DNA of 38,981 nt from Polychytrium aggregatum (lineage: Eukaryota; Chytridiomycota; Chytridiomycetes; Polychytriales). Below are positions 14,369 through 35,854 of the stretch, piece after piece (within the stretch, counting starts at the first letter, position 1; every line of letters begins with the position of its first letter). The stretch is taken from the NCBI RefSeq assembly GCF_025602895.1, contig NW_026516457.1:1-38981 (forward strand), in the 5' to 3' direction. The notes below the pieces were generated by a model. That model had not been told where the DNA came from. It saw only the letters and a program-made list of their open reading frames with translations, and searched no databases. The position numbers and the translations under genes were made by a program.

Positions 14369-14438
14369 AGCGCGCGATGGTTTTGGGTAACAAAATATTC
14401 GATCAATGGTCAAAACCTGGGTGTCCCGTTTTTTATTG
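14369..14438 (-). repeat. Right inverted repeat of the Tc1/IS630 element
   Basis: 70 bp, read inward on the minus strand, with the same ordered blocks as the left repeat. It lies over the transposase leader and the last codons of the neighbouring gene. Confidence 0.6.
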
Positions 14439-15555
14439 GATTGGCTGTAAATGGGACTGCTGATACGGCGTTGCCAAAGAGTCCGTCGCTCACACTACTC
14501 CACGCATCAGACCCGGTAATGACACCACGGTCCTCGACGTTCAAGAGGATGACACTCAACCATTCAGTCTGCGTCTTGATTTTTGAAATACCATCGACTA
14601 TTTCACTCGGCGCTCGGTTCGACTTTGGACCACCAAAAGCCTCACCAAACGCCCGGATAACAAACAACCCCCATTGCTTTATAGATTGTCCATTGACACT
14701 ACTCTTGCCTTGTTTAACCACCACCGACTCTAGGTAGTTTGTGACAATCTCTGGCTTGTATATATCTGCCATAGTCAGCTTCCGTGTGGCAGTCGTTGTG
14801 AGGGCTTCGTGTGAGCTCGTTGCTGTGCGTGCCTCCTCAGTAATCCGAGGTCTGACGTAAAAGTTAACCACCAGAAAAGCGACATACGAAAATGCAACCC
14901 ACCAGTGATAGAGCTCATTTAGTTGTATTCTAAATATCGTCATTCTATCCCACGACGACTTGTCACTCAGTCTAGCGATCGTGTCAACAATGTTACGAAG
15001 CATACTGAATGGATACAGTGTCTGCCACCCGGTGTTTCCATCGTCATTTGGTAAGCGCGCTAAATTTTCAACAATCTTCTCTATGCCATCGGCACTCTTC
15101 GCAGTATCACTTTCACCGACTGATATGCTTTCATGGATACGTTTACAATGAGCGCGTAGTTCGGTATATAAGCGACGCACACGCTCCTCTCCGTGTTTGA
15201 GGCAATCGTTAGTTTGGTCCTCCACGACATCCCTAATGCATTCACTCGCTTCTCCGATAGCAGAAACAAGCTGATACACCGTATTCAATATGTCAATAGC
15301 TGTTTTTGCTTTCTGGAATCTGAGCGTACCTTTCTTAGCCGTCCGATTAACCTTCGGTGATGTCGCCGTTGGAGTGGTCGACATGTCATCTGCGAGAAGT
15401 GCTTGAATCCACTCACCACTCCGCTGTTGATTTTGATTCCGCTTGACTTTACTGCTTTTGGATAGCATAGAGCTCCATAGATACACATTCCACAAGCGAC
15501 AGTGTTCATACACCCTCTCGATCTCAGCGGTCGAAGCGTGCATCGATTGGTCCAT
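14410..15555 (-). CDS. Unrecognised virus-like membrane protein, 3' end altered by transposon
   Basis: 381 residues from the ATG at 15555, mostly helical and charged. There is one clear membrane segment in the second half (WWVAFSYVAFLVVNFYV) and two helical stretches before it. No family is recognised. The last roughly ten residues and the stop lie inside the inverted repeat of the Tc1/IS630 element, so the native C-terminus was replaced or slightly shortened by that insertion. An A7-T motif lies 29 nt upstream of the start. Base composition is visibly more AT-rich than in the retroelements. Confidence 0.65.
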   Translation of the reverse strand: MDQSMHASTAEIERVYEHCRLWNVYLWSSMLSKSSKVKRNQNQQRSGEWIQALLADDMSTTPTATSPKVNRTAKKGTLRFQKAKTAIDILNTVYQLVSAIGEASECIRDVVEDQTNDCLKHGEERVRRLYTELRAHCKRIHESISVGESDTAKSADGIEKIVENLARLPNDDGNTGWQTLYPFSMLRNIVDTIARLSDKSSWDRMTIFRIQLNELYHWWVAFSYVAFLVVNFYVRPRITEEARTATSSHEALTTTATRKLTMADIYKPEIVTNYLESVVVKQGKSSVNGQSIKQWGLFVIRAFGEAFGGPKSNRAPSEIVDGISKIKTQTEWLSVILLNVEDRGVITGSDAWSSVSDGLFGNAVSAVPFTANPIKNGTPRF

Positions 15556-15583
15556 TTGTCGGTCAGTTTGACATCAGAGTGTG

Positions 15584-15591
15584 ATTTTTTT
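15584..15591 (-). promoter_or_regulatory. A7-T motif before the gene starting at 15555
   Basis: Seven A then T on the minus strand, 29 nt upstream of the start codon. It is one of eight copies of a candidate viral promoter. Confidence 0.5.
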
Positions 15592-15602
15592 GGGCCAGAA
15601 AT

Positions 15603-16889
15603 TCATGGCCATAGGTACGATTCGCTGGTACTATCGAATATATCATCCTGTTCTTCGTAGACGTTCATTAGTTCCCTGTCCTCATCGTCCTCAAAGTAAT
15701 TCTTCTCCCACTTCGGAAGGAGCTTGCTCGACTTGATATTACTCGGGGAACTTTGGTAACTCGAAAGGTATGTCGAAAACGCTTGGTCCACAGAGTCCAG
15801 ACCCTGGGAAATTATTTTCAGAGTCGATACGAAATGTTTCGCCTTATCACGCCCCTCTTCGACTCTTCCGGACTTGAATTGCCAGTCAATAAAATCGATC
15901 AATGGGTCGACACACCACGTTTGGAATTCATTCCACTCTTCCACGGAGACGGTGGTATGTCCATCGTTGGATGAATTTTTTAGAGCATCAGAGTATTCGG
16001 AAATCACAGTGTCGATATAATAAGCCCACCAGTCTACCATGTTGAGTAAAGTGTCATTCGGTTGATCAATAAGATCTCGAGGACTCTCCCCCGCTATTTC
16101 CGTTACAGTGTTTATCGGTTGTAACCTATTATTTTTCAATTTCTCTCGAGTGTACGGTGGGCTGTAATCCAGGTCATCATCTAGTAAACTTGTGTCGATA
16201 GGTGTGGTTGGCGTCACCGGCTTGATTTTATCCTGAGTGGGTGTTGTGTCTCCGGATTGCGGTGTTACGGGTGCCCGCCGAACAGTAGAGGTTGACGACC
16301 TTAAACTAGCTGGTTCACTTGTCTGATCGTCATCATTTGATCCAGGGACTTGAGATTCAGTTTCACCCGACACTGGTGATGTGAAGTCAGGATCAACGGA
16401 CGCTGCTGCATTTGACACCTCATACATAGACACTATATCGCTGGTAGGAGTGATACGTTCATCACCTATTGGGGAATCGGGGAGCCGAGCGGTTCTCCCT
16501 ACCTTTAATTCAGAACTCGTCGCCTGGACATCTGACCCTTCCGAGCTTCCACTACCGCTTCCTGAATCACCTTCACCAGCACCCTTCAACTGAACCCTCG
16601 GGACTATTTCATCGGAAATCGCTTTGTTCAACTCCATTCCGCCTTCCTGGTGTGCTCTGAGGTTGGCCAAAGCATTGTCAAGTTCCTCTCGAACGTTCGG
16701 TGGTAGCGCCTTCAAGCACGCTCGAGTCTTTTGAATGATTTCATCGATTTGTGACTCGACAGGATCGTATTTCCTTTGCGACATGGACGACTTATGCTCC
16801 TGACCATATTCATCAGAAAAAAACATTCCTCTTCCACTCAAGTGGTCGATGTTGAAGGGGGGTTGTCTCCAAATTTGGCGATCAGACAC
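15603..16889 (-). CDS. Unrecognised acidic, low-complexity protein
   Basis: Up to 428 residues from the ATG at 16889 (MSDRQIWRQ); an internal ATG at about 16784 (MSQRKYDPVES) would give a protein some 35 residues shorter. The N-terminal part has a helical segment. A central low-complexity stretch is rich in Ser, Thr, Pro, Asp and Glu (GDSGSGSGSSEGSD). The C-terminal half is helical and acidic, ending EDDEDRELMNVYEEQDD. No membrane segment or known domain is seen. It is divergent from the gene at 17041 across a 151-bp spacer and is followed on the same strand by the 381-residue gene after 47 bp. Confidence 0.6.
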   Translation of the reverse strand: MSDRQIWRQPPFNIDHLSGRGMFFSDEYGQEHKSSMSQRKYDPVESQIDEIIQKTRACLKALPPNVREELDNALANLRAHQEGGMELNKAISDEIVPRVQLKGAGEGDSGSGSGSSEGSDVQATSSELKVGRTARLPDSPIGDERITPTSDIVSMYEVSNAAASVDPDFTSPVSGETESQVPGSNDDDQTSEPASLRSSTSTVRRAPVTPQSGDTTPTQDKIKPVTPTTPIDTSLLDDDLDYSPPYTREKLKNNRLQPINTVTEIAGESPRDLIDQPNDTLLNMVDWWAYYIDTVISEYSDALKNSSNDGHTTVSVEEWNEFQTWCVDPLIDFIDWQFKSGRVEEGRDKAKHFVSTLKIISQGLDSVDQAFSTYLSSYQSSPSNIKSSKLLPKWEKNYFEDDEDRELMNVYEEQDDIFDSTSESYLWP

Positions 16890-16986
16890 TGCCTCAAAAT
16901 GTCAAGAAGCCATTCGATATTGGCATTGGTAATGTCATCCGTCGTTGTTGTTTCCATTGTCTTTGGATTGGCTGTGTCTACTGAAC

Positions 16987-16994
16987 AAAAAAAT
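16987..16994 (+). promoter_or_regulatory. A7-T motif before the gene starting at 17041
   Basis: Seven A then T in the spacer between the divergent genes, 47 nt before the ATG at 17041. Confidence 0.5.
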
Positions 16995-17040
16995 TATCAC
17001 CATTCATCGAGCAAGGCAAGGAAGCTCTTGGAACCCAACC

Positions 17041-17532
17041 ATGCCCCAACGGTCCGAAACACTCTTTCACTTCACCGACTACCATGACCCCATGCATCAC
17101 CACGACTTTGAATACATCTCGCACCGCACCATCGACCCGAGCGACCATCCAGACAAATCACACATCTCCCTCGATCACGGCAACAACGTATCCCTGACCT
17201 ACAGAATCGGCGATCAGCGGTACACTCACATACTCGGCAAGGACATCCGGAATCGTAATGAACTGGTTGCCCATCACCCGTCACCCCCGTTCCGGGTTGC
17301 GATGCTGGTCAACAAACGATCGGGTGCCAGCGGTACCGTATCGATCCTATCCCTGATGAACGAGCTACTTGGTCCGAATGGCGATGCCCACGGCCAGAAC
17401 TACACCCTCAGAGACGTCTTCCCTTACATCATGCATCGCCTCGGCAAGCTCGGGAACATTAGGAACTACAAGATCATCGCCATGGACAGGACCCTCAACC
17501 GGTTCGTGTACGACGATCTCGAAAGGAATTAA
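17041..17532 (+). CDS. Unrecognised virus-like protein (163 aa)
   Basis: Starts at the ATG at 17041 (MPQRSETLF); the frame is open upstream to 16945 only via TTG. The N-terminal third is rich in His and Asp (DYHDPMHHHDFEYISH). The rest looks like a small mixed alpha/beta domain with VAMLVNKRSG and NYKIIAMDRTL strands. There is no signal peptide or membrane segment. I do not recognise the family. It lies 35 bp upstream of the DUF5759-like gene on the same strand and is preceded by an A7-T motif. Confidence 0.65.
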   Translation: MPQRSETLFHFTDYHDPMHHHDFEYISHRTIDPSDHPDKSHISLDHGNNVSLTYRIGDQRYTHILGKDIRNRNELVAHHPSPPFRVAMLVNKRSGASGTVSILSLMNELLGPNGDAHGQNYTLRDVFPYIMHRLGKLGNIRNYKIIAMDRTLNRFVYDDLERN

Positions 17533-17567: not shown

Positions 17568-18104
17568 ATGAACTTCGCCCAGCGTCTCAGAGGCTTTCAC
17601 GACACCGGCATCGAACTCAGGCGACGGCGATACCATGAGATCCTTGAGCTGTGCTGCCACGAAATGACCATGCGAGCCAGCAATGGCCTCTATATGTACT
17701 TTGAGGTACCATTGATGGTGGCAGGATGCCCCGCATACGACATCAATGAGTGTGTGGCCTATATCCAACAATCCCTCTGCTCCGAAGGCGTATCGTGTGA
17801 TCTCTTCATGCCTCCAAACATCCTCTTCATTTCATGGAGCGCCGACCACTCACCAGACCCAAAACCATCCACACAATCACTGACTGTGCCAACCCAGCCT
17901 CTACCACCAGCATCACCACCACCGCGCCAACTCGACAACGACCTCGAACTCGACATCAACCCCACGGACCCGGTCTCGACGATGAACTTCACCGTGGGTC
18001 TCATGCGGTCCAATCCTCGATACAACCATCTCTTTGACGAGAGTGGGACTCCAAGCAAGAAAAAAAACACAGGGAAAAGGACAAAGCATTCCCAGAATCA
18101 ATGA
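17568..18104 (+). CDS. DUF5759-like protein of nucleocytoplasmic large DNA viruses
   Basis: 178 residues. The first about 95 form a compact domain with a helical N-terminus (RRRRYHEILELCCHEM). The sequence then follows a pattern I associate with a small uncharacterised family widespread in giant viruses (DUF5759): FEVPLMVAGCPAYD, then a Cys and YIQQSL, then PPNILFISW. The C-terminal half is a Pro/Thr-rich linker ending in a basic tail. Function is unknown. Its stop overlaps the next start (ATGA at 18101-18104). The family name is from memory and not searched, but the G-x-P-x-YD and PN-LFISW signatures are distinctive. This is the strongest single pointer to a giant-virus origin. Confidence 0.65.
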   Translation: MNFAQRLRGFHDTGIELRRRRYHEILELCCHEMTMRASNGLYMYFEVPLMVAGCPAYDINECVAYIQQSLCSEGVSCDLFMPPNILFISWSADHSPDPKPSTQSLTVPTQPLPPASPPPRQLDNDLELDINPTDPVSTMNFTVGLMRSNPRYNHLFDESGTPSKKKNTGKRTKHSQNQ

Positions 18105-18358
18105 AGGATCCGGCATCTGCTTTCGAACCAGCTCTTGTTGCCATATGCGTCCTCCTCGGCCGCATCGGTGGTCGATTCATTGTCGACGACTTTGAAGTCA
18201 TGTGGTGCCACAACTTGTTCAGAACCAAAGTCGTAAAGGCGATTGTCGTCTTTGCGCTGGCATACGTCGGCTCCAGAAGCATAGCCGTGAGCACGCTGTT
18301 TGCAACCGCATACTTCATTCTTGGTCCTCGCTCTGCCATCGACGCCAACTCGACGTGC
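18101..18358 (+). pseudogene. Small membrane protein gene interrupted by TE-E
   Basis: The start overlaps the previous stop. 86 codons are present before the TE-E LTR, with two hydrophobic segments (ALVAICVLLGRIGG, and VVKAIVVFALAYV followed by TLFATAYFILG). The second resembles the hydrophobic hairpin of the 27167 protein, a pattern common in giant-virus membrane proteins. The frame runs six bases into the LTR to a TAG. Beyond the duplication CGTGC on the far side, the original frame would end five codons later at 24783-24785, so the insertion removed almost nothing and the product may still be made. Confidence 0.65.
18354..18358 (+). repeat. TE-E target-site duplication, left copy
   Basis: CGTGC directly before the LTR, repeated at 24763-24767 directly after the other LTR. 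Confidence 0.9.
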
Positions 18359-18902
18359 TGTTAGGGATAGCTTCTGCTTGTTCTCCACTTTGACTGCACA
18401 CTTGGCTGTTCTTTTGCCTTTCTGTTTGTTTGTGTGTAGCTTTGCAGTTCCCCTCCAATTTTCCGCCTTTTGCCTGCCATTTCCGCTCCTTCCGCACTTC
18501 CGTTTCCCCGCGCTGCTCCGCTTCCTTTGTCTTCTTCGCACGCGCCGGTTTGTTTGTGCACGCGCCTTGCTGCGATTGGTTGCAATTCGGCTGCCGGTCA
18601 TGTGTCCCACCACCGGTGACTCATGACCTGCCTGACCGCCCCGATCTCTTGTTCATCTCGCATGCATTTGCCCCAACCTTATACTTGACCAATCCGCTTC
18701 TTGGACGTTGAGTCACATTGCTTCGCCTTTGCACGTTTCTCCTGCCAGGTGCTTCGCTTTTGCTTGCGCCTCCCTCGCTTTGGTTCTCTGCCTGTCTCGG
18801 TGGTCCTTCTCGGCCCTCGTTCGTGCATCGCCCCCTTCGCCCTGCTCGATCGCCCACTTTTCCCTCCCTTGGCCGCCCTTCGCTGCCAAGTCCGGACTTG
18901 TC

Positions 18903-18953
18903 TATAAATAGCCTGACCCCCGCGATGTGTAGTCGAACCTCAGCGTTCAAAAT
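18903..18953 (+). promoter_or_regulatory. TE-E TATA box and self-primer
   Basis: TATAAAT at 18903-18909. AGCGTTCAAAAT at 18942-18953, 39 nt after the box, is the exact reverse complement of the 12 bases at 19152-19163 behind the LTR. This fits a transcript whose first bases act as primer, as in Tf1. Confidence 0.75.
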
Positions 18954-19000
18954 AGGACTAAATAAAGTGCCTTCTACTTTATTCTCTGAGTGTTCCTCAC

Positions 19001-19144
19001 GTCTCATTTCGAGACTAGTCTTATCTTGAACGGATCTTTGCTTCCCTCGCTCCCTCTCCGAGTCCACTTCGGACTTTACCCTTGCCTTCCCTGAGCTCAC
19101 TTCGAGCTCACTTCTTCTTTTGCCGTTGAGTCCCCTTCGGACTC
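19001..19144 (+). other. Four tandem short hairpins in TE-E leader
   Basis: Stems with five-base loops ending in TTC. GTCTC/GAGAC has loop ATTTC (19001-19015). GAGTCC/GGACTT has loop ACTTC (19060-19076). GAGCTC/GAGCTC has loop ACTTC (19093-19109). GAGTCC/GGACTC has loop CCTTC (19128-19144). Stem sequences differ but pair, and the loops are alike. All four are kept in TE-C. Confidence 0.7.
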
Positions 19145-19151
19145 TAACATC

Positions 19152-19163
19152 ATTTTGAACGCT
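19152..19163 (+). other. TE-E primer-binding site (self-primed)
   Basis: ATTTTGAACGCT begins two bases after the LTR end and is complementary to the presumed RNA 5' end at 18942-18953. No tRNA-like 3' CCA complement (TGG) is present at this position. Confidence 0.75.
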
Positions 19164-19220
19164 CCCTCTTGGCTTCCCGGCCTTTCTTCTTCTTTCGCCT
19201 CTCTTTCCCTCGTCGATCCG

Positions 19221-20174
19221 ATGGCTGAGCCTGCTGCACCCCCTGCAGACCTCAACGCGTATCTGGCGCGCATGGAGGAGCGTATGAACGCCCTCATGAC
19301 CCAGAACGCTGCTCTCCATCGTCAGATCCAAGATCTGCAAGCTCCCGCCGCCGCTCCCCGCCAGGTCTACCAGGTCAACAAGCCCAAGGAGTTCCTAGGT
19401 TCCCGCGATGAAACGACGGCCTTCCTCGCCCAGTGCCACCTGGTTTTCCTCGCCGATCCTGCCTTCTTCGCGCCCGAGCGCCAGAAGGTCCTGTACGCCA
19501 CCTCCTTCCTCCGCGGTGAAGCCTTCAAGTGGTACGAGGCCGCCTTCTACATGGCCAACCGCTTCCCGGCTTCCTTCGCGGATTTTGAAGTTGCCCTCAA
19601 GTCGACCTTCGGTGAGGACACGGCCTCCTCGCAAGATAAGGCCTTGAACGACCTCAAGCGCTTGGTCCAGCTCAAGTCCTGCCAAGCCTTCGCCACCCGC
19701 TTCGTCCAGCTCGCCGCCCGCGTCCAGACTGATGAACCCACCAAGATGCACTTCTTCAAGGAGGGTTTGAAGTCTGAGGTCAAGTTCCACCTCATCGGTC
19801 TCCGCCCCGCTCCCGCTTCCCTGCCTGAGTTGATCAAGGCAGCGGTCGAGTACGACGATGCCCTCCATCGTCTCAAGATCTCCTCCCGTTCCCAACCTCC
19901 TCCTCCTTCTTCTCGCTCTGCTCCCCATCACCACCATTCTCCCGCGCATGTTTCTTCTTCCTCCTCTTCTGCACCCACTCCCATGGACCTTGACTCTGTC
20001 TCGGTCCGCCCTGCTAAGCTCTCCGACGTCGAGAAAAAGCGACGTCGTGAGCAGGGTCTCTGCCTGTACTGCGGGGAAAAGTCTTGTCCCGGCAGTCGCG
20101 ATGTTCAGCAGTGCCCGGTTCTGGTCAAACGGAACTCGGGAAATGCCCACAGCCGAGCAGCACCTCGCAAGTAA
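19221..20174 (+). CDS. gag: TE-E Gag
   Basis: 317 residues from the ATG at 19221. The frame extends to 19155 only through a TTG that lies within the primer-binding site. A short coiled-coil-like N-terminus (LARMEERMNALMTQNAAL) precedes the capsid-like domain with KPKEFLGS, FKWYEAAFYMANRFP, FATRFVQLAARV and KMHFFKEGLKSEV. A Ser/His/Pro linker follows. The C-terminal knuckle is atypical, C-x2-C-x4-C and a last Cys eight residues further, where the usual His is replaced by Cys. It would build the particle and bind element RNA. The stop codon lies in the loop of the frameshift hairpin. Confidence 0.9.
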   Translation: MAEPAAPPADLNAYLARMEERMNALMTQNAALHRQIQDLQAPAAAPRQVYQVNKPKEFLGSRDETTAFLAQCHLVFLADPAFFAPERQKVLYATSFLRGEAFKWYEAAFYMANRFPASFADFEVALKSTFGEDTASSQDKALNDLKRLVQLKSCQAFATRFVQLAARVQTDEPTKMHFFKEGLKSEVKFHLIGLRPAPASLPELIKAAVEYDDALHRLKISSRSQPPPPSSRSAPHHHHSPAHVSSSSSSAPTPMDLDSVSVRPAKLSDVEKKRRREQGLCLYCGEKSCPGSRDVQQCPVLVKRNSGNAHSRAAPRK

Positions 20175-20192
20175 GCGAGGTGGTCTGTTCGG
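20138..20192 (+). promoter_or_regulatory. TE-E programmed -1 frameshift signal
   Basis: A canonical slippery heptamer G GGA AAT (gag-frame codons GGA, AAT) lies at 20138-20144. After an 8-nt spacer comes a two-part stem. The outer arms are 20153-20160 with 20185-20192 (8 pairs, one G-U). The inner arms CACCTCGC and GCGAGGTG are 20161-20168 with 20175-20182. A two-base bulge separates the parts. The loop 20169-20174 holds the gag stop TAA. The -1 frame is open throughout. TE-C keeps the whole structure. Confidence 0.85.
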
Positions 20193-23100
20193 CGATACGA
20201 ACATCTTCCCCCTCTGACTCGTCATTATCGGACGATAAGCTTCTTCTTCCGGCCACCCTTGTCGTCATGAGTCTTTCTGGCCCGGTCTCCATCTCCCTTT
20301 CTGTCTTTATTGATGATGGATGCACCGCTCTTGCCCTCATTGATCCTGCCTTTGCGGATCTCCATAAACTCTCTCTTATCCCTCTTTCTACTCCCTACTC
20401 CGTTTCCCTTGCTGATGGTTCTTCGGCCGGTTTCATTCGTTTCCAAACCGTTCCTGTGACGTTGACCATTGGTTCCCACACCGAGTCGATTTCTTTTCTT
20501 GTGACTCGACTCTCCACCACTCCCATCACTCTTGGTCTTCCCTGGATGCGCTTGCATAATCCAGTTGTCAATTGGAAGTCCCTCTCCCTTTCGTTCTCCG
20601 ATCCCTCTTGCCTTGCTGATGGACACATCCTCGCGGATGTCTCTGCTTCCTCCTTGGACACTTCGTCCCCTTCCGGCTATTCGCCTCCCCCTTCGGGCAC
20701 TTCGCCTTTGACTCCTCCCTCCGGTCCTTCCCTTACACCGGTTCCCTCCTTTGGCACTTCGCCTTCCCTTTCTTCCCGCCTTGACTCTGCTTCGCTTTCT
20801 GAAGAGCCAACGGCTTTATCTTCGCCCGACATTGAGCTCGTTAATGCGGCGAGTCTTCTCCGTCTTGCACGGGAAGACAAGCTCGACATTTTCGCTGCCC
20901 AAATGGATATCCGTCCTCCTTCGCCGGAGACGTATCCTACGGTGTCGATAAGGTCCGTGCTCACGACGAAGGTGTATGCCGAGTCTGGCACCCCTGTTGA
21001 CTCTCGAGGTGTCCCGCTCAAATACAATGAGTTTGGCGACGTTTTCAGCCTCAAGTCTGACCCTCCTTCTTCCTTGCCTCCTCACCGTCCGTATGACTTG
21101 TCTATTGAGTTTGTACGGACCGAGGATGGAAAGGAACCTCGTTTGCCAAAGCCGGGGAAAGTCTATCCTTTGTCCCCGGCCGAGGAATCTGCTCTTTCGG
21201 AGTATCTGACCAACGCCCTCGCACGTGGTTGGATCTCCAAATCCTCTTCTCCCGTTGGTGCTCCCTGCTTCTTCGTGAAGAAGCCCAATGGTGGTCTTCG
21301 CCTTTGCGTCGACTACCGGGGCCTCAATGCCATCACGAAGAAGAACCGCTACCCTCTTCCCCTCTTCCAGGATCTTCTGGATAAACTTTCTTCTGCCCGC
21401 GTCTTCTCACACCTTGACCTTCCTGATGCTTACCACTTGGTTCGTGTCAAGAAGGGCGATGAGTGGAAGACTGCTTTTGTTTGCAAATCTGGCTCTTACG
21501 AGTACAATGTTATCCCCTTTGGTCTTTCGAATGCCCCCGCTGCTTTTCAGTTTTTTATGAACGACATCTTCTCGGACCTCCTTGGTGTCTGTGTTGTCAT
21601 TTATCTTGACGACATCCTGATCTTCTCAAAAGATCCCCTGGAGCATGAGGAGCATGTTAAGCTTGTTCTTTCTCGCCTTCGTGAACACTCTCTTAAGGTC
21701 AATCCGGCCAAGTGTTCTTTTGACCTTTCTGAAGTTGACTTTCTCGGCATGATCATTTCTGCCGATGGCATTAAAATGGACCCTGCCAAGGTCGAGGCCG
21801 TTTCCCTTTGGCCTGTTCCCTCTTCTGCTCGCGACATCCAAGTTTTTATTGGTTTCGCAAACTTTTACCGCCGCTTCGTCAAGGACTTTTCCGCACTTGC
21901 TCGTCCTTTGACTTCACTCACCACCAAATCCTCCACCTTCTCTTGGTCTCCCGAGGCCCAAGAGGCTTTTGATTCTCTTAAACGTTCATTCACTTCCGCA
22001 CCTATTCTTCGTTACTTTGATTTCTCCAAACCCGCTGTCATCGAGCCCGATGCTTCTGACTTTGCTCTGGGTGCCGTCCTTTCCCAGTTTGACCCTGACG
22101 GCGCTCTTCACCCCGTTGCTTTTCACTCTCGGCAATTCCGTCCCGCCGAGGTGAATTATGACACCCACGACAAAGAGCTCCTTGCTATTGTCGATTCCTT
22201 TACTGCCTGGCGTCATTACTTGATGGCTGCCGACCCCGATCATCCCACTCTTGTTTTCTCTGATCACCAGAACCTCACCCGGTTCACTTCCGCTTCCCAA
22301 CTTTCTCGCCGCCAGTTCCGGTGGGCCCAATTCCTTTCTGATTTTGCTTTTCGCATTTACCACCGCCCTGGTCGCCTCAACACCAAAGCCGATGCTCTCA
22401 GTCGCCGTTCTGACTTTGAGATAAAGCCTGGTGACTCCCTCCACTCCACCAACTTCCTTCAGCTGTTCGAGTCTATTTCTCTCGACAGCATCACCGTTAT
22501 CGGCTCGAACCCCGATTTTCTTTCCGAGATTCGAGCTGCCACCCTTTCTTGTTCCCTTCTTTCTGACTTCAACGCCAAACGTCTTGATGGCGATTACTCC
22601 TTCCGTGACGGTCTCCTTTACTTTAAAGACCTGATCGTTGTCCCTTCCCCCGAGCTCCAGCTCAAAGTGTTTGAGCAACGTCACTGCTCCGCTGCCGCTG
22701 GTCACTTTGGTCTTGCCAAGACCGTTGAGCTCATCTCCCGGGACTTTCACTGGCCCCGGCTTCGTAAGTCTGTGCGTCGCTTCATTGCTAATTGTGAAGC
22801 GTGCCAGCGAGCCAAGCCGTCCCGTCACTCCCCTTATGGTTTACTTCACCCTCTCCCCGTTCCTTCCGAACGTTGGTGGGACCTGTCGATGGACTTCATC
22901 ACGGATCTCCCACCTTCGAACGGCTTTGACTCCATCTTCGTGGTTAAGGACCGCCTGTCCAAACAAGCACACTTTGTGCCCACCACGAAGACGGTTACAG
23001 GCGAGCAAACCGCCGAACTCTTCCTCTCCCACATCTTCCGCTTGCATGGTTGTCCCCGGTCTATTGTTTCGGACCGAGGAACTCAGTTTACTTCGGCCTT

Positions 23101-23959
23101 CTGGAGGCGCTTCAATGAGCTTCTGAAGACGAAGATTTCCCTTTCTTCTGCCTTCCACCCCGAGACCGACGGTTCGACCGAGGTTCTCAACCAGGTCATC
23201 GAGCAGTATTTGCGTATCCATTGCAATTACCTGCAAGACGACTGGACCCTTCACCTTCCCCTTGCCGAGTTCACTTACAACAACTCGGAAAACACCTCCA
23301 CTGGCATGACTCCCTTCTTTGCAGTCCATGGCCATCACCCCATTTTTGATCCCTCCATCATCCGTGATCCTTCTGTTGTGCCCTCTGCCGAAGAACGTGT
23401 CGACCGACTTCAGACCGTTCTCGAGGATCTCAAGGCCAACCTCCGGGTTGCCCAAGAGTCCTACACTTTGCAGGCCAACAAATCCCGTCTCCCCACTCCC
23501 GACATCTCCGTTGGCGACCTCGTTTTTCTTGATCGTCGCCACATCCGCACCCTTCGTCCCTCCAACAAGCTTGATCAGAAAAAGCTTGGCCCCTTTAAAG
23601 TTCTTCGCCGCATCAACCCCGTTGCCTTTGAACTTAAACTCCCTTCCACACTCAAAGTCCACCCCGTCTTTCATGTATCCCTCCTTGAACCCCGAACGAA
23701 GGACATTGTTCCCGAGTTCACCCAACCCGAACCTCCACCCATTCTTGTTGACTCCCAGGAAGAGTTTGAGGTCGAGACTGTTCTCGATTCTCGGCTCTTC
23801 CGTGGTCGCTTACAGTACTTGGTTCAGTGGAAGGGCTATTCCGAGACTGACCGGTCTTGGGAGCCCGCTGCCAATGTTTCCCACGCCACTGATCTTGTTG
23901 CTGACTTCCACCTTCGCTATCCCTCAAAGCCGAAGGCGACGCCCGGAGTTCGTCGCTAA
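20144..23959 (+). CDS. pol: TE-E Pol polyprotein (PR-RT-RNase H-INT-chromodomain)
   Basis: 1271 residues after the -1 shift. The protease has FIDDGCTALALID at about 20306-20344, a DDG triad instead of the usual DTG/DSG, then LADGSSAGF. After a Ser/Pro linker comes RT, with LPPHRPYDL, LRLCVDYRGLNAIT and YLDD at 21602-21613. RNase H has EPDASDFALG, DKELLAIV, FSDHQNL and NTKADALSR. Integrase has the HHCC finger (HCSAAAGHFG ... CEACQRAK), a core with SMDFITDLP, SDRGTQFTS and TDGSTEVLNQ (D, D, E), a KLGPFKV module, and a chromodomain (FEVETVLDSR, YLVQWKGYS, RSWEPAANV) near 23760-23920. No frameshift or stop is seen. Confidence 0.93.
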   Translation, partial: CPQPSSTSQVSEVVCSAIRTSSPSDSSLSDDKLLLPATLVVMSLSGPVSISLSVFIDDGCTALALIDPAFADLHKLSLIPLSTPYSVSLADGSSAGFIRFQTVPVTLTIGSHTESISFLVTRLSTTPITLGLPWMRLHNPVVNWKSLSLSFSDPSCLADGHILADVSASSLDTSSPSGYSPPPSGTSPLTPPSGPSLTPVPSFGTSPSLSSRLDSASLSEEPTALSSPDIELVNAASLLRLAREDKLDIFAAQMDIRPPSPETYPTVSIRSVLTTKVYAESGTPVDSRGVPLKYNEFGDVFSLKSDPPSSLPPHRPYDLSIEFVRTEDGKEPRLPKPGKVYPLSPAEESALSEYLTNALARGWISKSSSPVGAPCFFVKKPNGGLRLCVDYRGLNAITKKNRYPLPLFQDLLDKLSSARVFSHLDLPDAYHLVRVKKGDEWKTAFVCKSGSYEYNVIPFGLSNAPAAFQFFMNDIFSDLLGVCVVIYLDDILIFSKDPLEHEEHVKLVLSRLREHSLKVNPAKCSFDLSEVDFLGMIISADGIKMDPAKVEAVSLWPVPSSARDIQVFIGFANFYRRFVKDFSALARPLTSLTTKSSTFSWSPEAQEAFDSLKRSFTSAPILRYFDFSKPAVIEPDASDFALGAVLSQFDPDGALHPVAFHSRQFRPAEVNYDTHDKELLAIVDSFTAWRHYLMAADPDHPTLVFSDHQNLTRFTSASQLSRRQFRWAQFLSDFAFRIYHRPGRLNTKADALSRRSDFEIKPGDSLHSTNFLQLFESISLDSITVIGSNPDFLSEIRAATLSCSLLSDFNAKRLDGDYSFRDGLLYFKDLIVVPSPELQLKVFEQRHCSAAAGHFGLAKTVELISRDFHWPRLRKSVRRFIANCEACQRAKPSRHSPYGLLHPLPVPSERWWDLSMDFITDLPPSNGFDSIFVVKDRLSKQAHFVPTTKTVTGEQTAELFLSHIFRLHGCPRSIVSDRGTQFTSAFWRRFNELLKTKISLSSAFHPETDGSTEVLNQVIEQYLRIHCNYLQDDWTLHLPLAEFTYNNSENTSTGMTPFFAVHGHHPIFDPSIIRDPSVVPSAEERVDRLQTVLEDLKANLRVAQESYTLQANKSRLPTPDISVGDLVFLDRRHIRTLRPSNKLDQKKLGPFKVLRRINPVAFELKLPSTLKVHPVFHVSLLEPRTKDIVPEFTQPEPPPILVDSQEEFEVETVLDSRLFRGRLQYLVQWKGYSETDRSWEPAANVSHATDLVADFHLRYPSKPKATPGVRR

Positions 23960-23971
23960 GGAAGGGGATGA
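23958..23971 (+). other. TE-E polypurine tract
   Basis: AAGGAAGGGGATGA directly before the 3' LTR, overlapping the pol stop codon. It primes plus-strand DNA synthesis in this class. Confidence 0.7.
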
Positions 23972-24762: not shown

Positions 24763-24767
24763 CGTGC
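24763..24767 (+). repeat. TE-E target-site duplication, right copy
   Basis: CGTGC directly after the 3' LTR, matching 18354-18358. The virus-like sequence resumes here. Confidence 0.9.
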
Positions 24768-27166: not shown

Positions 27167-27655
27167 ATGGCCACCATCCTTCAGTCCGCTGACCGTCTCA
27201 TCAACCAGAGTCTCGCCGTGCTCGATAACAAATGGGTTAGCGGTTTCTTGCGTCTCTTCCTGTTCCTGTACGGCGGCTTTGCCGCTCCCAAACTCACCGC
27301 CAGCGCCACTGTCGTCTTCGAGAACCCCATCTTCCGCGTCCTTGTCTTCTTCCTGATCATCATCGTGGCCAACAAGGACTTTGCCCTCTCGCTGCTGCTC
27401 ACCTTTGTCTTCTTCACCAGCACTTGGTACATTGAGAACAAGCTGAATGCTTCCGGGTCTACGAGCTCCAGCATCGGCACTGGCTTGAGCTCGAGCGGCC
27501 TCTTCGGCAGTAGCAGCGTCGCACCCAAATCCAGCTCGGTCGTTGCCCCGACGGCGGTTTCCGTCACAGTGCCTCCCAGATACACATCCTTCAGTCAGAA
27601 CGGTGATTCAATCCCCGGCTACGACGAGAACGATGTGCCGTATGCTGCGTTCTGA
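27167..27655 (+). CDS. Hydrophobic virion membrane protein (162 aa)
   Basis: Two or three membrane segments: FLRLFLFLYGGFAAPKLTAS, FRVLVFFLIIIVANKD and FALSLLLTFVFFTSTWYI. A Ser/Gly/Thr-rich tail follows, with a terminal PGYDENDVPYAAF. The pattern LYGG.AAPKL ... VFFLII.VANKD.ALSLLL resembles hydrophobic proteins found repeatedly in giant viruses (remembered, not searched). The second hairpin resembles that of the 18101 protein. A T7 tract lies 39 nt before the ATG, inside the end of the previous gene. Confidence 0.65.
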   Translation: MATILQSADRLINQSLAVLDNKWVSGFLRLFLFLYGGFAAPKLTASATVVFENPIFRVLVFFLIIIVANKDFALSLLLTFVFFTSTWYIENKLNASGSTSSSIGTGLSSSGLFGSSSVAPKSSSVVAPTAVSVTVPPRYTSFSQNGDSIPGYDENDVPYAAF

Positions 27656-27662
27656 TCACCCA

Positions 27663-28388
27663 ATGGAAAACCAGGCCCTCACACAACCATCCACCGCAAT
27701 GACCGCACCAGTAGACTGCTGCTTCTTTGAGCTCACCCATTTCAAGCCATTCCTCCTCTATCTTGACGACACACCCCGTCTCTACGACGGCGAGACCGTC
27801 ACCTTTCTCGATATCGATATCGAGAAATCACACACTCCTACGACCCGAAACCGAAACCGAGACCGGGGTGTATTCATTGTCGAGATATGGGAGACCATCA
27901 ATCGCCCCAAACTGCTCGTATTCAGAGACTGCATCACCCATCCAAGCTTTGATCTCCTCGAGCGCCGCCAGCAGATCGCAGCAACGATCGCCGCCATGGA
28001 TGTGCGCGAGTATCAGTGTATCGTATCCCCCCTCTTCCACTGTGCGACCAACATCCGATTCGTCCTCTGCAATGCACCAACCAACGTCAGCGGCTTTTGC
28101 ATCACTCCGCGCTTTCAACGACCGGCTGGTCTGGACATGCCGCAACTGCCCGACCCACGTGTCTCCCACACCATTGAAATCGAGTTCAGTGAATGTGGCG
28201 GAGATAACCCCGAGGCCTATCGGGTTGTGCATGAGCAACGTGGATCCCGCCGGTTCTTGCGCCTTCCCGATCTGGGTGCGTGCAAGGGGGTCGCCGCGGC
28301 GTTCGAGGCAGCTTCGCCCAAGAAACGCATATATATCCAGGCCCGCTTCGATCCGGTCTGGATGTCTTGGACACCTCTGCTCATCTGA
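27663..28388 (+). CDS. Unrecognised soluble protein (241 aa), weak nucleotidyltransferase-like pattern
   Basis: The ATG at 27663 (MENQALTQ) is 7 bases after the previous stop; the longer open frame begins with a non-ATG codon inside that gene. There is no membrane segment. Several beta strands alternate with helices: CCFFELTHFKPFLLYLDD, LYDGETVTFLDIDIE, FIVEIWETINRPKLLVFRD, SGFCITP. The order DGE, then a V/I-rich strand with a following Arg and an ERRQQ helix, then GFCITP, loosely recalls an mRNA guanylyltransferase fold. The catalytic KxDG motif is not visible, so I do not assign that function. Confidence 0.55.
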   Translation: MENQALTQPSTAMTAPVDCCFFELTHFKPFLLYLDDTPRLYDGETVTFLDIDIEKSHTPTTRNRNRDRGVFIVEIWETINRPKLLVFRDCITHPSFDLLERRQQIAATIAAMDVREYQCIVSPLFHCATNIRFVLCNAPTNVSGFCITPRFQRPAGLDMPQLPDPRVSHTIEIEFSECGGDNPEAYRVVHEQRGSRRFLRLPDLGACKGVAAAFEAASPKKRIYIQARFDPVWMSWTPLLI

Positions 28389-30816: not shown

Positions 30817-30828
30817 AGGTTTGAGTCC

Positions 30829-32879: not shown

Positions 32880-33896
32880 CTACTTGCCTGTCGTGTTTGT
32901 CGCCCAGACCAAGTTTGTCCCGTTGTAGATGACCAGGTTTCCGTCGTTTTGCATCGTGAGCGCCGTAACTGGTCGTCCATCGGTATGTGAGACCCACAGA
33001 GGCTTCTTGGCGCTGTCGAATACGACCAGATTGCCATCGTTTTGAAGCGTCGCTGTATATGGCCCTGTTCCCTGACCACCCGTTCCTGTCGACCATATAG
33101 CAGCACCGGTTTTGTTGTTGTATACCACAAGGTTTCCGTCCTGCTGCATGACCAAGGCGTAAGAAGAATCCGGTGAGGATAACACAGCACACGACGACAT
33201 ACTCGTACCTGGTGACAATGCCGAATTGGTCGATGCAGCGGCACTGAACGGCATCCCCGCAGCACTGCACTGCGAATACACCGATGCGGGAGCTGCCAGC
33301 TTGCTGATGTACAGGTTTTGATTTGCAGCCCCTGGAGTGCATGCAGCCAGATCAAGCACTGTACCATTTGTCCTGGTATTGCCTTGCAAATCAAGACACT
33401 TGGTGCTGTCGGGTCCCCATGTCCATGTCGATCCACTGCTCGTGTTGTTCGTCCATGTTTGCGACTGGTCCGTGATATCACACGTCTTGATAACAATGGC
33501 GCTGCCTGCTGCAGCACTCGTTCCACCGGTTGGAGCGAGACACTTCATGCTGGTTTGGTCAATGAGACGCTGGTTAGTGCTGTCGTATCCAAAGTTTTGT
33601 CCTGCTCCATTCGAGTAATCCCAGTAAACCACAGCCGTGCCATCGGCCGTCTGCCCACCGGATACCTCCAAACCTCGCGAGGCATTGTCGCTCGTATGGA
33701 ACATACCGTATGTTGGAGCACCAAAAGTCGGCTGTGAAACGGACCCGACTGCACTTGTAGCAGGAGCGGTGCTGGTATGGGTTGGATAATACACTGCGAG
33801 CGCGTTCCGGTAGTAGCCCATACCCGCACCACCAAGAGCGATTGCGGAGCATATGCATGCGACCACGATGACAATAATGACGATCAAGATGCTCAT
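32880..33896 (-). CDS. Membrane-anchored double-lectin protein 1 (338 aa)
   Basis: Start at the ATG at 33896 (MSILIVIIVIVV), which puts the membrane anchor at the very N-terminus; the frame is open to 33977 across the A8-T motif. After a short linker comes a ricin-B-type beta-trefoil (ADGTAVVYWDYSNGAGQNF, MKCLAPTGG, SQTWTNN, KCLDLQGN). Next is a bulb-type mannose-binding lectin domain with three Q-x-D-x-N-x-V-x-Y-type sites: QQDGNLVVY, QNDGNLVVF, QNDGNLVIY. Sugar binding at a membrane or virion surface is the likely role. It is a close paralogue of the 34011-35219 gene. Confidence 0.8.
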   Translation of the reverse strand: MSILIVIIVIVVACICSAIALGGAGMGYYRNALAVYYPTHTSTAPATSAVGSVSQPTFGAPTYGMFHTSDNASRGLEVSGGQTADGTAVVYWDYSNGAGQNFGYDSTNQRLIDQTSMKCLAPTGGTSAAAGSAIVIKTCDITDQSQTWTNNTSSGSTWTWGPDSTKCLDLQGNTRTNGTVLDLAACTPGAANQNLYISKLAAPASVYSQCSAAGMPFSAAASTNSALSPGTSMSSCAVLSSPDSSYALVMQQDGNLVVYNNKTGAAIWSTGTGGQGTGPYTATLQNDGNLVVFDSAKKPLWVSHTDGRPVTALTMQNDGNLVIYNGTNLVWATNTTGK

Positions 33897-33941
33897 TGTG
33901 GTGTGCTCACCAAGAGATTTGTCGTTCTGCTTTGTGGTTTC

Positions 33942-33950: not shown

Positions 33951-34010
33951 CGAGTATCGGTGCTTTCGAGTTTGCAATCATTCGATTCTACAGGGACTGG
34001 CTTCAATTGC

Positions 34011-35219
34011 CTACTGACCCATCGTGTCGGTCGCCCAGACAGCGGATGTCCCGTTGTAGATGACCAAGTTTCCGTCGTTTTGCATCGTGAGTGCCGTTAC
34101 CGTTCGTCCATTTGTCTGCGACGACCACAGAGCAGTCTTGGTGGAGTCATACACAACCAGGTTTCCGTCGGTCTGGAACGACGCTGTGTATGGACCCTTA
34201 CCTTGCCCGCTCGTACCTGACGACCATGTAGAGGCACCGGTTTTGTTGTTGTACAGCACCAGATTACCGTCTTGCTGCATAATGAATGAATGCATGGAAT
34301 CGGGTGATGTCAGTACCGTACATGAGGCAATGTTTGTACCCGGAGCAATAGACGAATTGGTCGATGCGACGGCGGTCACTGGTGTGGCGGCTGCACTGCA
34401 CTGAGCACTAGCGGCTGCCGGAACAAGCATCGGTCCAAAGTAGAAATTCTGGTTCGCCCCACCACTGCACGTCCAAAAATCCAGAACCGTCCCGTTGCTT
34501 CGACCGTTACCTTGCAAATCAAGACACTTGGTGCTGTCGGGTCCCCATGTCCATGTCGATCCACTGCTCGTGTTGTTCGTCCAGGTTTGCGACTGGTCCG
34601 TGATATCACACGTCTTGATGACAATGGCGCTGCCAGCAGCAGCACTCGTTCCACCGGTGGGTGCGAGACACTTCATGCTGGTTTGGTCAATGAGACGCTG
34701 GTTAGTGCTGTCGTATCCAAAGTTTTGCCCGGATCCATTCGAGTAGTCCCAGTAGACGACAGCCGTACCATCCGCCGTCTGTCCACCCCAAGTCGCAAGG
34801 CCGCGTGCGGCATTGTCGTTCGTTCGGAAAATGGTGTAAGATGACGCTCCAAACGTCGGCTGCGGGGTACTACCTGATGCCGGTGCAGTCGTGCTCGGTG
34901 TGGACGTTGTGTTGCCACTGCCTGTTCCGCTGGGTGTCCCGCTGGTCCCGCTGGTGCTGGGAGTGCTGCTACTACCAGACCCCGAGCCACTCGAGCCACT
35001 GCTTCCGGAGCCGGTACCCGTTGCGCTCGGTGAACTGCTACTGCTGCCACTGGTATTGGTGGTGTTGCTGGTGTTAGGTGAACTCGAGCTGCTACTACTC
35101 GAGTTACCGCTCGATGATGACTGCATGTAAAAGTAATAGTATAAACCAACCCCACCGCTCGCCATCACAGAGCATATACAAACGATAATGGCAATGATGA
35201 TAATTACCGTAGTGTTCAT
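34011..35219 (-). CDS. Membrane-anchored double-lectin protein 2 (402 aa)
   Basis: Start at the ATG at 35219 (MNTTVIIIIAIIVCICSV), an N-terminal anchor. A long Ser/Gly/Thr linker absent from the paralogue follows, with runs of Ser and SGSSGSGSGSSSTPSTS-like stretches. The ricin-B-type trefoil has ADGTAVVYWDYSNGSGQNF, MKCLAPTGG, SQTWTNN and KCLDLQGN. The bulb-lectin domain has QQDGNLVLY, QTDGNLVVY and QNDGNLVIY. The trefoil core is nearly the same as in protein 1 and the bulb domain more diverged. The linker would extend the lectins from the membrane. The frame is open upstream only via a TTG. Confidence 0.8.
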   Translation of the reverse strand: MNTTVIIIIAIIVCICSVMASGGVGLYYYFYMQSSSSGNSSSSSSSSPNTSNTTNTSGSSSSSPSATGTGSGSSGSSGSGSGSSSTPSTSGTSGTPSGTGSGNTTSTPSTTAPASGSTPQPTFGASSYTIFRTNDNAARGLATWGGQTADGTAVVYWDYSNGSGQNFGYDSTNQRLIDQTSMKCLAPTGGTSAAAGSAIVIKTCDITDQSQTWTNNTSSGSTWTWGPDSTKCLDLQGNGRSNGTVLDFWTCSGGANQNFYFGPMLVPAAASAQCSAAATPVTAVASTNSSIAPGTNIASCTVLTSPDSMHSFIMQQDGNLVLYNNKTGASTWSSGTSGQGKGPYTASFQTDGNLVVYDSTKTALWSSQTNGRTVTALTMQNDGNLVIYNGTSAVWATDTMGQ

Positions 35220-35246
35220 CGACGAATCGTTCTGCTTTGTGGCTTC

Positions 35247-35254
35247 ATTTTTTT
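35247..35254 (-). promoter_or_regulatory. A7-T motif before lectin gene 2
   Basis: Seven A then TGAAGCC on the minus strand, 28 nt before the start at 35219. Confidence 0.5.
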
Positions 35255-35282
35255 CTTTGACAGGCCGATCGAGTCTGGTCGC

Positions 35283-35290
35283 AAAAAAAT
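35283..35290 (+). promoter_or_regulatory. A7-T motif before the gene starting at 35321
   Basis: Seven A then T, 31 nt before the ATG at 35321, in the 101-bp divergent spacer. Confidence 0.5.
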
Positions 35291-35320
35291 CCAGCCATTC
35301 ATCAGACAAAATCACATTCA

Positions 35321-35854
35321 ATGCCCTCTAACGACCTGTCGTACGTCGCAATCGTCGTCGTGCTGATCCTGACTCTGCTGTTTTTTGCTTCGCGCATGCC
35401 CTCGATGGAGTATCTCACTCCAGTGCCAGCGGCTCAGACTTCATCAACCATACCACGCGCATCCCTTTTGTCTTTCGCCCTGGACACGACGCTGGCTGAC
35501 ATCAATGCATTCTCAAACTTGGCCAATCGTTCGACGCTGTACGTTGTCGACAAGGGAACCAACGCCCTCGTGAAGCTCACCAGCGCTGATCAAAGCATGT
35601 GGGTTCGTCGATTCACCTTCCCAGGCACCGGCCTGGACTCGACCACACTCCCCAGATACGCATTCTTCTTGACGACCACAGGTGTCGACTGGCCCGAGAA
35701 GGCGACCCTGCAGCTCACTGCCAATACCAATGGGGTGGTGTCATCGTCCAGTATCGATATTCGGCAGTTCCCGGGTGTCGCTCGCCTGGTCATCCCACCA
35801 CCAACGGGCAGAACAGCGGATACGACATACCTCTACAGTTTCGCCTGGCAATAG
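35321..35854 (+). CDS. N-terminally anchored virion-like protein (177 aa)
   Basis: Begins MPSNDLSYVAIVVVLILTLLFFASR, with a membrane anchor at residues 8-22. The rest looks like a single beta-rich domain (ASLLSFALDTTLADINAF, LYVVDKGTNALVKL, MWVRRFTFPGTG, LPRYAFFLTTTGVDW, TTYLYSFAWQ). No family recognised. The topology matches the neighbouring lectins and the 26071 protein, suggesting another virion or infected-cell membrane protein. It is the last virus-like gene on the right. Confidence 0.7.
   Translation: MPSNDLSYVAIVVVLILTLLFFASRMPSMEYLTPVPAAQTSSTIPRASLLSFALDTTLADINAFSNLANRSTLYVVDKGTNALVKLTSADQSMWVRRFTFPGTGLDSTTLPRYAFFLTTTGVDWPEKATLQLTANTNGVVSSSSIDIRQFPGVARLVIPPPTGRTADTTYLYSFAWQ

What the first reader, a model, noticed from the sequence alone, without database searches (positions are those of the whole stretch)
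14410..35854. Endogenised giant-virus-like gene cluster in a cellular genome
Seen: seventeen short, intron-less, tightly packed genes on both strands. They include a DUF5759-like protein, several small anchored membrane proteins, hydrophobic proteins with a recurring hairpin, a basic zinc-ribbon protein, fibre-like proteins and lectins. Known: this mix is typical of virion gene sets of Nucleocytoviricota. Inference: this is part of an integrated viral genome; no hallmark gene (major capsid protein, DNA polymerase, packaging ATPase) is in the window. TE-E inserted with a duplication inside one of these genes, so the DNA was exposed to host retroelements.
Basis: partly seen in the sequence, partly recalled or inferred. 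Interest (0 to 1): 0.85.

Follow-up and report, generated by a model that had tools for sequence, protein, structure and literature searches.

The report
Endogenous giant virus in chytrid fungus

Summary
Window 14,440-36,237, minus a 6.4-kb retrotransposon, is a compact block of 16 intron-less genes of a Nucleocytoviricota virus: DUF5759, a P11-type minor capsid protein, anchored lectins, fibre-like proteins. The window is a whole contig of a 64.7-Mb assembly, identified as Polychytrium aggregatum by a 100% match to its annotated major capsid protein. Hallmark genes missing from the window lie elsewhere in the assembly: C5 (170 kb) carries this block plus capsid, polymerase B, RNR and PCNA genes; C96 carries A32-like ATPase and VLTF3. 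C58, C63 and C277 hold parts of the block too. Window and C5 differ mostly by synonymous changes (dN/dS 0.25), so related strains probably entered separately. The retrotransposon has identical LTRs, a 5-bp target duplication and 30 identical copies elsewhere in the assembly, so the viral DNA was within reach of host elements. It lies between genes, not inside one; another gene is cut by a different transposon. No virus-host junction was reached. Capsid proteins from four other zoosporic fungi lie on the same side of a well-supported branch. Endogenous giant viruses are known, in fungi too; this is a capsid-bearing chytrid one.

The parts
14410..15555 (-). Viral gene of unknown function, 3' third lost; its last ~12 codons run into a Tc1-like transposon
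   Evidence: 381 aa against a 543-aa ORF at C5 69974-71605; sequence departs from residue 370; no family hit
15603..16826 (-). Viral gene, acidic 407-aa protein of unknown function
   Evidence: no family above cut-off; net charge -37
16794..17087 (+). Small protein with one hydrophobic segment
   Evidence: its copy on C5 is identical from 16902 on
17041..17532 (+). 163-aa viral protein, unknown; A-tract motif at -54
17568..18104 (+). DUF5759 protein
   Evidence: PF19063 4.9e-9, above cut-off; three places in the assembly: C5, C63, C174; 0 of 14 control genomes
18354..24767 (+). Ty3/gypsy chromovirus inserted between two viral genes: TSD CGTGC 18354-18358 and 24763-24767; LTRs 18359-19149 and 23972-24762 (100% identical); gag 19221-20174; pol with integrase and chromodomain 20267-23959
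   Evidence: 30 places besides the window match the 4,739-bp body at 100% with the window's own bit score, one of them on C5; empty site on C5
24778..25221 (-). 147-aa fibre-like viral protein; A-tract motif at -47
   Evidence: PHROG head-decoration family only 0.0062
25305..26012 (+). Very basic protein (net +52) with two CxxC motifs (zinc-ribbon-like); DNA binding is a guess
   Evidence: zinc-ribbon families below cut-off
26071..26499 (+). P11-type minor capsid protein with N-terminal anchor; A-tract motif at -55
   Evidence: PF23983 4.6e-13, cut-off passed; hydrophobic 1-23; no homologue but itself among 5.8 billion proteins, 72 candidates scored
26538..26915 (+). 125-aa viral protein, unknown
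27167..27655 (+). Small protein with a long hydrophobic stretch, possibly a hairpin
   Evidence: two overlapping segments 46-69 and 54-83
27633..28388 (+). 251-aa viral protein, unknown
   Evidence: 4 synonymous and 1 non-synonymous change against C5
28000..30816 (+). Sel1-repeat protein (12 repeats); start likely at 28399
   Evidence: PF08238 6.1e-86; open in C174, C58 and C277, broken on C5
30829..32781 (-). 650-aa repetitive fibre-like protein; A-tract motif at -43
   Evidence: PHROG structural protein 0.0007; no PDB relative by sequence
32880..33896 (-). Membrane-anchored ricin-B plus B-type (mannose) lectin; A-tract motif at -54
   Evidence: PF00652 1.8e-11, PF01453 2.6e-11; hydrophobic 1-28
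34011..35219 (-). Membrane-anchored ricin-B plus B-type lectin, paralogue of the previous gene; A-tract motif at -35
   Evidence: PF00652 8.7e-15; hydrophobic 1-29; two DNA pieces 79% and 89% identical with the neighbour
35321..35854 (+). 177-aa anchored protein; A-tract motif at -38
   Evidence: hydrophobic 1-30; single-sequence model pLDDT 45.5, only the first helix is reliable
36464..38981 (.). 38-bp minisatellite that ends the contig; C5 has a 37-bp array just past the same place
   Evidence: C5 continues with ORFs beyond it
1..14440 (.). Nested transposons left of the viral block: gypsy 3918-10322 (LTRs 99.5% identical), a further gypsy piece near 10322-11130, a repeated element with a 770-aa ORF 11032-13344, and a Tc1-like DDE element 13432-14364

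Best explanation
The block is a stretch, probably the virion-gene stretch, of the genome of a Nucleocytoviricota virus that entered the nuclear genome of the chytrid Polychytrium aggregatum. Several related strains of the virus entered, rather than one copy being duplicated. The genes were made to build a particle (capsid protein and P11 minor capsid protein, anchored lectins and fibres for binding the host surface, a basic protein for the DNA). Part of them are probably switched on together by an A-tract promoter (A6-8 followed by T) about 35-55 nt upstream of the start codons. After entry the viral DNA was treated as host chromatin. An active chromodomain retrotransposon and Tc1-like elements inserted into it, and some genes are now broken (14410-15555 here, the Sel1 gene on C5). 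Shown: the gene content, the hallmark genes on other contigs, the several copies, the pattern of substitutions, the insertions. Inferred: integration, entry of separate strains, the promoter role, virion function, and silencing in heterochromatin to which the integrase's chromodomain would steer.
For: Hallmarks in the same assembly: MCP on C5, C63, C326; PolB in one open frame on C5 and C189 against exon-like pieces of cellular PolBs; A32 and VLTF3 on C96; RNR small and PCNA (RNR) and an AEP primase on C5. C5 is collinear with the window (99.2%, then 99.3% and 97.7%); C58 and C277 carry the window stretch too and C58 further C5 stretches. Window vs C5, 16 genes: 76 synonymous changes in 3,288 sites against 61 non-synonymous in 10,530, ratio 0.25, Fisher 1.3e-15; 0.19 without genes 1 and 12. 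Partial copies on C58, C63 and C277 give 0.05, 0.04 and 0.36. Retrotransposon: 30 identical places besides the window, LTRs 791/791 identical, TSD and empty site, chromodomain 1.2e-12. A6+T motif between -65 and -25: 13 of 95 C5 ORFs against 0.46% of random 40-mers, opposite strand 2 of 95; 7 of 14 ORFs in the window-equivalent stretch against 6 of 81 elsewhere on C5, p 3e-4.
Against: No contig was seen with virus and host genes side by side. Viral matches lie on contigs of at most 170 kb where length was given; C254, C196, C350 and C287 have no length on record. The left ends of C58 and C63 stop inside viral sequence, so not every contig end is a repeat, and a lasting nuclear episome is not excluded. 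P11 found no relative outside this assembly, and 15 of 16 window proteins found none in 46 IMG/VR polymerase loci (the 16th was read in a wrong frame). dN/dS is 1.06 for gene 1 and 0.64 for gene 2. The A32 family also matches 2 of 14 control genomes and PolB 5 of 14, so these two alone are not specific. The motif was found and tested on the same data. Of seven hallmark genes looked at, none has it in the tested interval: VLTF3 has an A-run at -23, MCP and A32 a T-run, three have neither, and the seventh had only 11 nt of upstream sequence. It may be a host-type poly(dA:dT) tract; host genes could not be tested.
Confidence: 0.68

Rival explanations
1. The virus persists as a large nuclear episome or latent genome rather than in a chromosome, and transposons jump into it there.
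For: Viral matches lie on contigs of at most 170 kb where length is known, and no host gene was seen beside them. Substitutions between copies are under purifying selection, as for a virus that still replicates.
Against: About a third of C5 (58.8 of 170.4 kb by a hand-drawn list of repeat intervals) is transposon, nested in places; some gene copies are broken. A replicating virus with so much insert would be unusual. The right ends of C58 and C63 and both ends of C174 lie in repeats, which would explain part of the missing junctions; the left ends of C58 and C63 do not.
Confidence: 0.1
2. One insertion, then duplicated inside the fungal genome.
For: C58 and C277 share one insertion next to the same viral site, and C63 and C326 share a Tc1-like insertion beside the capsid gene, so some contigs are duplicates or alleles of each other.
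Against: Window versus C5 dN/dS is 0.25, where neutral decay would give about 1. Insertion sites differ between C5, C174, C58/C277 and C189. Synonymous divergence jumps from 0.34% (genes 3-10) to 4.8% (genes 13-15), p 1.3e-10, which suits recombining strains better.
Confidence: 0.2
3. Contaminating virus or another organism's DNA in the assembly.
For: Small contigs; dense genes unlike the exon-split cellular genes.
Against: The retrotransposon inside the block is identical over 4,739 bp to copies on many contigs, among them C79, which bears a cellular polymerase in exon-like pieces.
Confidence: 0.01
4. Ordinary fungal gene cluster (lectins, Sel1 repeats), no virus.
For: Sel1 proteins occur elsewhere in the assembly at 26-40% identity; lectin domains are common in fungi (general knowledge).
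Against: P11 and DUF5759 profiles above cut-off; co-location on C5 with capsid and polymerase.
Confidence: 0.01

Closest known systems
Giant endogenous viral element of Rhizophagus irregularis (1.5 Mb; PMC10640383: abstract and passages seen)
   Same: Nucleocytoviricota genome stretch in a fungus; minor capsid genes present
   Different: [quoted passage not shown] here MCP, A32, VLTF3 and RNR are present, viral stretches occur in several copies, and TEs are abundant
NCLDV genes in Gonapodya prolifera and Allomyces macrogynus (PMC5294986: passages seen)
   Same: Zoosporic fungi; polymerase and/or D5 genes labelled 'Phy', in small islands amid eukaryotic genes
   Different: One or two core genes reported there; here a 170-kb contig with virion genes
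Juan de Fuca Ridge single-virion genomes with putative Ascomycota hosts (PMC9894930: passages seen)
   Same: Nucleocytoviricota proposed to infect fungi
   Different: Free virions from crustal fluid, host inferred from gene transfer and from the fungi present; here the viral DNA is in a fungal assembly
Amoebidium appalachense endogenized giant viruses (PMC11244446: abstract and passages seen)
   Same: Recurrent insertion of giant viruses with MCP, A32, VLTF3 and D5 genes
   Different: Host is a protist relative of animals; hundreds of insertions; silencing by 5mC shown there, only guessed here
Euglena gracilis GEVEs (PMC12455990: abstract seen)
   Same: Several closely related elements invaded by transposons
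   Different: Asfuvirales in Discoba; here the MCP is nearest, among solved capsids, to chlorovirus ones
Paramecium bursaria chlorella virus 1 capsid (1m4x is named PBCV-1; that 8h2i is the same virus is recalled)
   Same: MCP match (8h2i MCPv1 2.4e-98, 1m4x 4.3e-71); P11-type minor capsid protein (that P11 is a PBCV-1 protein is recalled)
   Different: Alga host (recalled); the P11 match covers only the conserved C-terminal part; membership in Phycodnaviridae not tested by a rooted tree

Membership tests
Nucleocytoviricota | Double-jelly-roll major capsid protein (Capsid_N + Capsid_NCLDV) | tested here: met
   Capsid_N on C5, C63, C326, 0 of 14 controls; both domains in the C5 protein, 6.2e-57 and 5.3e-51; not in the window itself
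Nucleocytoviricota | Family-B DNA polymerase of viral type | tested here: met
   One open frame on C5 and on C189; the C189 gene runs into a gypsy element at its end, so the last residues of my query are not viral. Nearest relatives other than itself: Quaeritorhiza 50%, environmental contigs 36-39%. Best solved relative is eukaryotic pol delta, usual for these viruses (general knowledge)
Nucleocytoviricota | A32-like packaging ATPase and VLTF3 | tested here: met
   Neighbouring genes on C96; hmmscan 2.9e-6 (weak, over cut-off; the family also matches 2 of 14 controls) and 1e-46 (0 of 14 controls). That C96 belongs to the same virus as C5 is inferred
Nucleocytoviricota | D5-type primase-helicase | tested here: inconclusive
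   AEP_C962R 1.2e-14 in one C5 ORF; a 908-aa ORF has DUF5906 at 2.2e-5, under its cut-off
Giant endogenous viral element | Viral genes physically joined to host chromosome | not testable with these tools
Indirect support: identical transposons inside and on contigs with cellular genes
Giant endogenous viral element | Signs of decay or TE invasion | tested here: met
Phycodnaviridae / Algavirales | Placement inside the family in a rooted marker tree with named references | not tested
   No named giant-virus sequences were at hand; chlorovirus capsids are the best PDB matches
Fungus-associated capsid branch (proposed here) | MCPs from fungal assemblies fall together | tested here: inconclusive
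   8 of 8 named fungal MCPs lie on a 33-row side of a branch with SH-aLRT 99, with 25 environmental rows; 37 environmental rows on the other side. They are not one clade by themselves (3 changes of the label; 0 of 500 shuffles as low). 70 of the 120 listed hits used, all near the query, unrooted

The most novel reading that the evidence does not exclude
Polychytrium aggregatum is host to a living lineage of capsid-building giant viruses of zoosporic fungi (with relatives in Allomyces, Catenaria, Quaeritorhiza and Blyttiomyces). Several strains have entered its nucleus repeatedly and recently enough that most genes of the block are still open and look selected, driven in part by an A-tract late promoter, while a chromodomain retrotransposon homes to the silenced viral chromatin and dismantles it.
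Probability: 0.4. Interest if true: 0.8.

Novelty: new member of a known kind. Interest (0 to 1): 0.62.

Why it matters
A 2023 paper on Rhizophagus states that no dsDNA virus infecting fungi is known to date, and found no capsid gene with that fungus's element (PMC10640383, abstract and passages). Here a fungal assembly carries capsid, minor capsid, packaging ATPase and late transcription factor genes of a giant virus, with the window block in several near-identical copies, so particles of a fungal giant virus become a concrete thing to look for in a chytrid. The several copies, with recent retrotransposon insertions, let one ask how often the virus enters and how the host silences it.

Tried and rejected
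Relatives of the window genes in viral contigs: P11 (none), MCP alone and as an alignment (none), PolB alignment (46 loci, at most 33% identical). No hit at E 0.01 for the window proteins in those loci (the Sel1 gene was read in a wrong frame there, so 15 of 16 were truly tested). P11 against 5.8 billion proteins gave only itself. The structure of 35321-35854 without an alignment is too poor to search. NCBIfam gave nothing for 10 proteins: 8 viral ones of the window, the 770-aa transposon ORF and the A32 protein. PDB gave nothing for the 650-aa fibre-like protein or the 770-aa ORF and only a chance match for P11 (0.095).

Rejected: that the two minisatellites (38 bp in the window, 37 bp on C5) are shown to be related; the best rotation scores 9.0 against shuffles averaging 3.3 (sd 2.2), but the highest of 200 shuffles reached 11.

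Own errors: (first dN/dS) used a wrong frame for the Sel1 gene and a length not divisible by three for gene 3; one search replaces it. Notebook entry 4 still bears the old ratio 0.29. One search used the same wrong start for the Sel1 gene; with the likely start it has no A-tract either, so 8 of 16 stands. One search failed for the same reason; one search is the rerun with the whole ORF. The main reading is now 0.68; that viral genes are there at all I hold at about 0.97.

Papers: 10 searches. No held paper has both 'Polychytrium aggregatum' and 'virus'. No bioRxiv collection is held and most subscription journals are missing, so an earlier description is not excluded. Gong et al. 2020 was seen only as cited in PMC10640383.


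Full report
What is there. The window is the whole of contig C174 (38,981 bp) in an assembly of 64.7 Mb and 418 contigs. The assembly is Polychytrium aggregatum, a chytrid fungus (lineage): the 415-aa capsid protein on C5 is 100% identical to a database protein with that organism name on a 91,312-bp contig, the length of C63; a polymerase with the same organism name lies on a contig of 36,002 bp, the length of C189. The left 14.4 kb are nested transposons. From 14,440 to 36,237 the DNA is a two-strand block of 16 intron-less genes, broken once by a 6.4-kb retrotransposon. The right end is a 38-bp minisatellite. ORF cover is 82% against 13.7% on average, and at most 31.5%, in 100 shuffles.

The genes. 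Pfam above cut-off: DUF5759, P11 minor capsid C-terminal region, Sel1 repeats, ricin-B and B-type lectins. The two lectins, P11 and the last gene begin with a hydrophobic anchor. The remaining genes match nothing above cut-off in Pfam. Ten of them were run against PHROGs, two with weak structural-protein matches and eight with none.

The rest of the virus. The window block lies on contig C5 (170 kb) at 70,491-85,861, 97.7-99.3% identical, without the retrotransposon. On C5, four sets of ORFs (97 in all; transposon stretches mostly left out, ORFs at 10-kb piece ends partly missed; the list for the second set shows 25 of 40 families) show polymerase B, an archaeo-eukaryotic primase, RNR small subunit, PCNA, RNase III, a papain-type protease, protein kinases, WD40 and Sel1 proteins, with some retrotransposon ORFs among them. 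The MCP is at 19,677-20,294 and also on C63 and C326. PolB is also on C189, where it runs into a gypsy element at its end. A32-like ATPase and VLTF3 are adjacent on C96. Cellular PolBs come in exon-like pieces, mostly on contigs of 198-892 kb, two pieces on a 31.5-kb one.

Copies. The block is found wholly or partly on C5, C58, C63, C174 and C277. C58 follows C5 from 73.8 to 140 kb in the places tested. C58 and C277 share one insertion, as do C63 and C326, so not every contig is a separate insertion. C5 1-10,000 has only one further match, 1.3 kb on C254. C5 160-170 kb matches C189, C196, C350 and C287, besides 30-46-bp repeat matches on many contigs. Against C5 the 16 window genes show 76 synonymous changes in 3,288 sites and 61 non-synonymous in 10,530 (ratio 0.25, Fisher 1.3e-15); without genes 1 and 12 the ratio is 0.19. 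Partial copies on C58, C63 and C277 give 0.05, 0.04 and 0.36 (7, 8 and 43 changes). Genes 1 and 2 alone stand at 1.06 and 0.64 on few changes. Neutral decay after a duplication would give about 1, so the copies most likely parted as replicating viruses. Synonymous divergence is 0.34% in genes 3-10 and 4.8% in genes 13-15 (p 1.3e-10), a mosaic that suggests recombination between strains. Decay has begun: gene 1 is cut by a Tc1-like element in the window (a 543-aa ORF on C5), and the Sel1 gene is broken on C5 but open on C174, C58 and C277.

The retrotransposon. It is a Ty3/gypsy chromovirus with RT, integrase and chromodomain. Its LTRs are identical over 791 bp, it is flanked by a 5-bp duplication, and C5 holds the empty site. 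Its 4,739-bp body matches at 100% and with the same bit score in 31 places listed, the window and one C5 place among them, and only the best candidates (31 of 829) were scored. Since C79 bears both identical copies and a cellular polymerase in exon-like pieces, the viral DNA was in reach of the host's own recently active element. It lies between two genes, not in one.

A promoter candidate. A k-mer scan upstream of C5 ORFs brought up A-runs followed by T. In the window 8 of 16 genes have A6-8 then T 35-55 nt before the start codon. On C5 13 of 95 ORFs have it between -65 and -25, against 0.46% of random 40-mers, and 2 of 95 on the opposite strand. In the window-equivalent stretch it is 7 of 14, elsewhere 6 of 81 (p 3e-4). 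T-runs are in excess too: 12 of 94 in the 100 nt upstream. The hallmark genes do not fit well: MCP and A32 have a T-run, VLTF3 an A-run at -23, RNase III, PolB and RNR neither, and the D5-like gene could not be judged. Since the motif was found and tested on the same data, and fungal promoters may have such tracts too (general knowledge), its role is a guess.

Relatives. Among solved capsids the MCP matches chlorovirus ones best (that the top entry 8h2i is PBCV-1 is recalled, 1m4x is named so). Among 120 listed hits, eight bear names of fungal assemblies: Polychytrium, Allomyces javanicus (2), Catenaria anguillulae, Quaeritorhiza haematococci (2), Blyttiomyces helicus (2). In a tree of 70 of the 120 (8 fungal, 62 environmental taken by length and rank) all eight lie on one side of a branch with SH-aLRT 99, among 25 environmental rows; they are not a clade by themselves. 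The tree is unrooted and sampled around the query, so it suggests, but does not prove, a lineage tied to zoosporic fungi. PolB agrees in part: the nearest protein other than its own is from Quaeritorhiza (50%), and Allomyces follows at 35% behind environmental ones.

Novelty. Endogenous giant viruses are known, in fungi too (PMC5294986, PMC10640383), and free giant viruses with putative fungal hosts have been described (PMC9894930). New, as far as the 10 paper searches show, is a chytrid with the capsid gene set in several strains. Gene content and copy structure are shown; integration, separate entries, promoter and silencing are inferred.

Noticed in passing
window 11032-13344: A 770-aa ORF in a repeated element (another copy at C5 144363-146774) with a CCHC-like start and a D-P-G motif that recalls Fanzor/TnpB-type nucleases from memory; no Pfam family above cut-off, no NCBIfam and no PDB hit confirms it.
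   Followed up: partly
window 36464-38981 and C5 86095-87445 (L019): Different 37/38-bp minisatellites at the same place of two virus copies; hypervariable site or unrelated arrays, undecided.
   Followed up: partly
C5 64561-69848 and 90593-105000 (L017, L020, L021): WD40 proteins with a 126-bp internal repeat, and protein kinases, one of them fused with Sel1, in the viral contig; possibly taken from the host.
   Followed up: no
C5 63295-63993 (L017): A 348-bp exact tandem duplication in a stretch that also occurs in the window near 10780-11130.
   Followed up: no
window 27766-27770; C58, C277: Both contigs have the same insertion at this viral site; alleles or a recent duplication.
   Followed up: partly
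C189 (L028): The viral polymerase gene on C189 runs into a gypsy element of the same family as the one in the window.
   Followed up: partly
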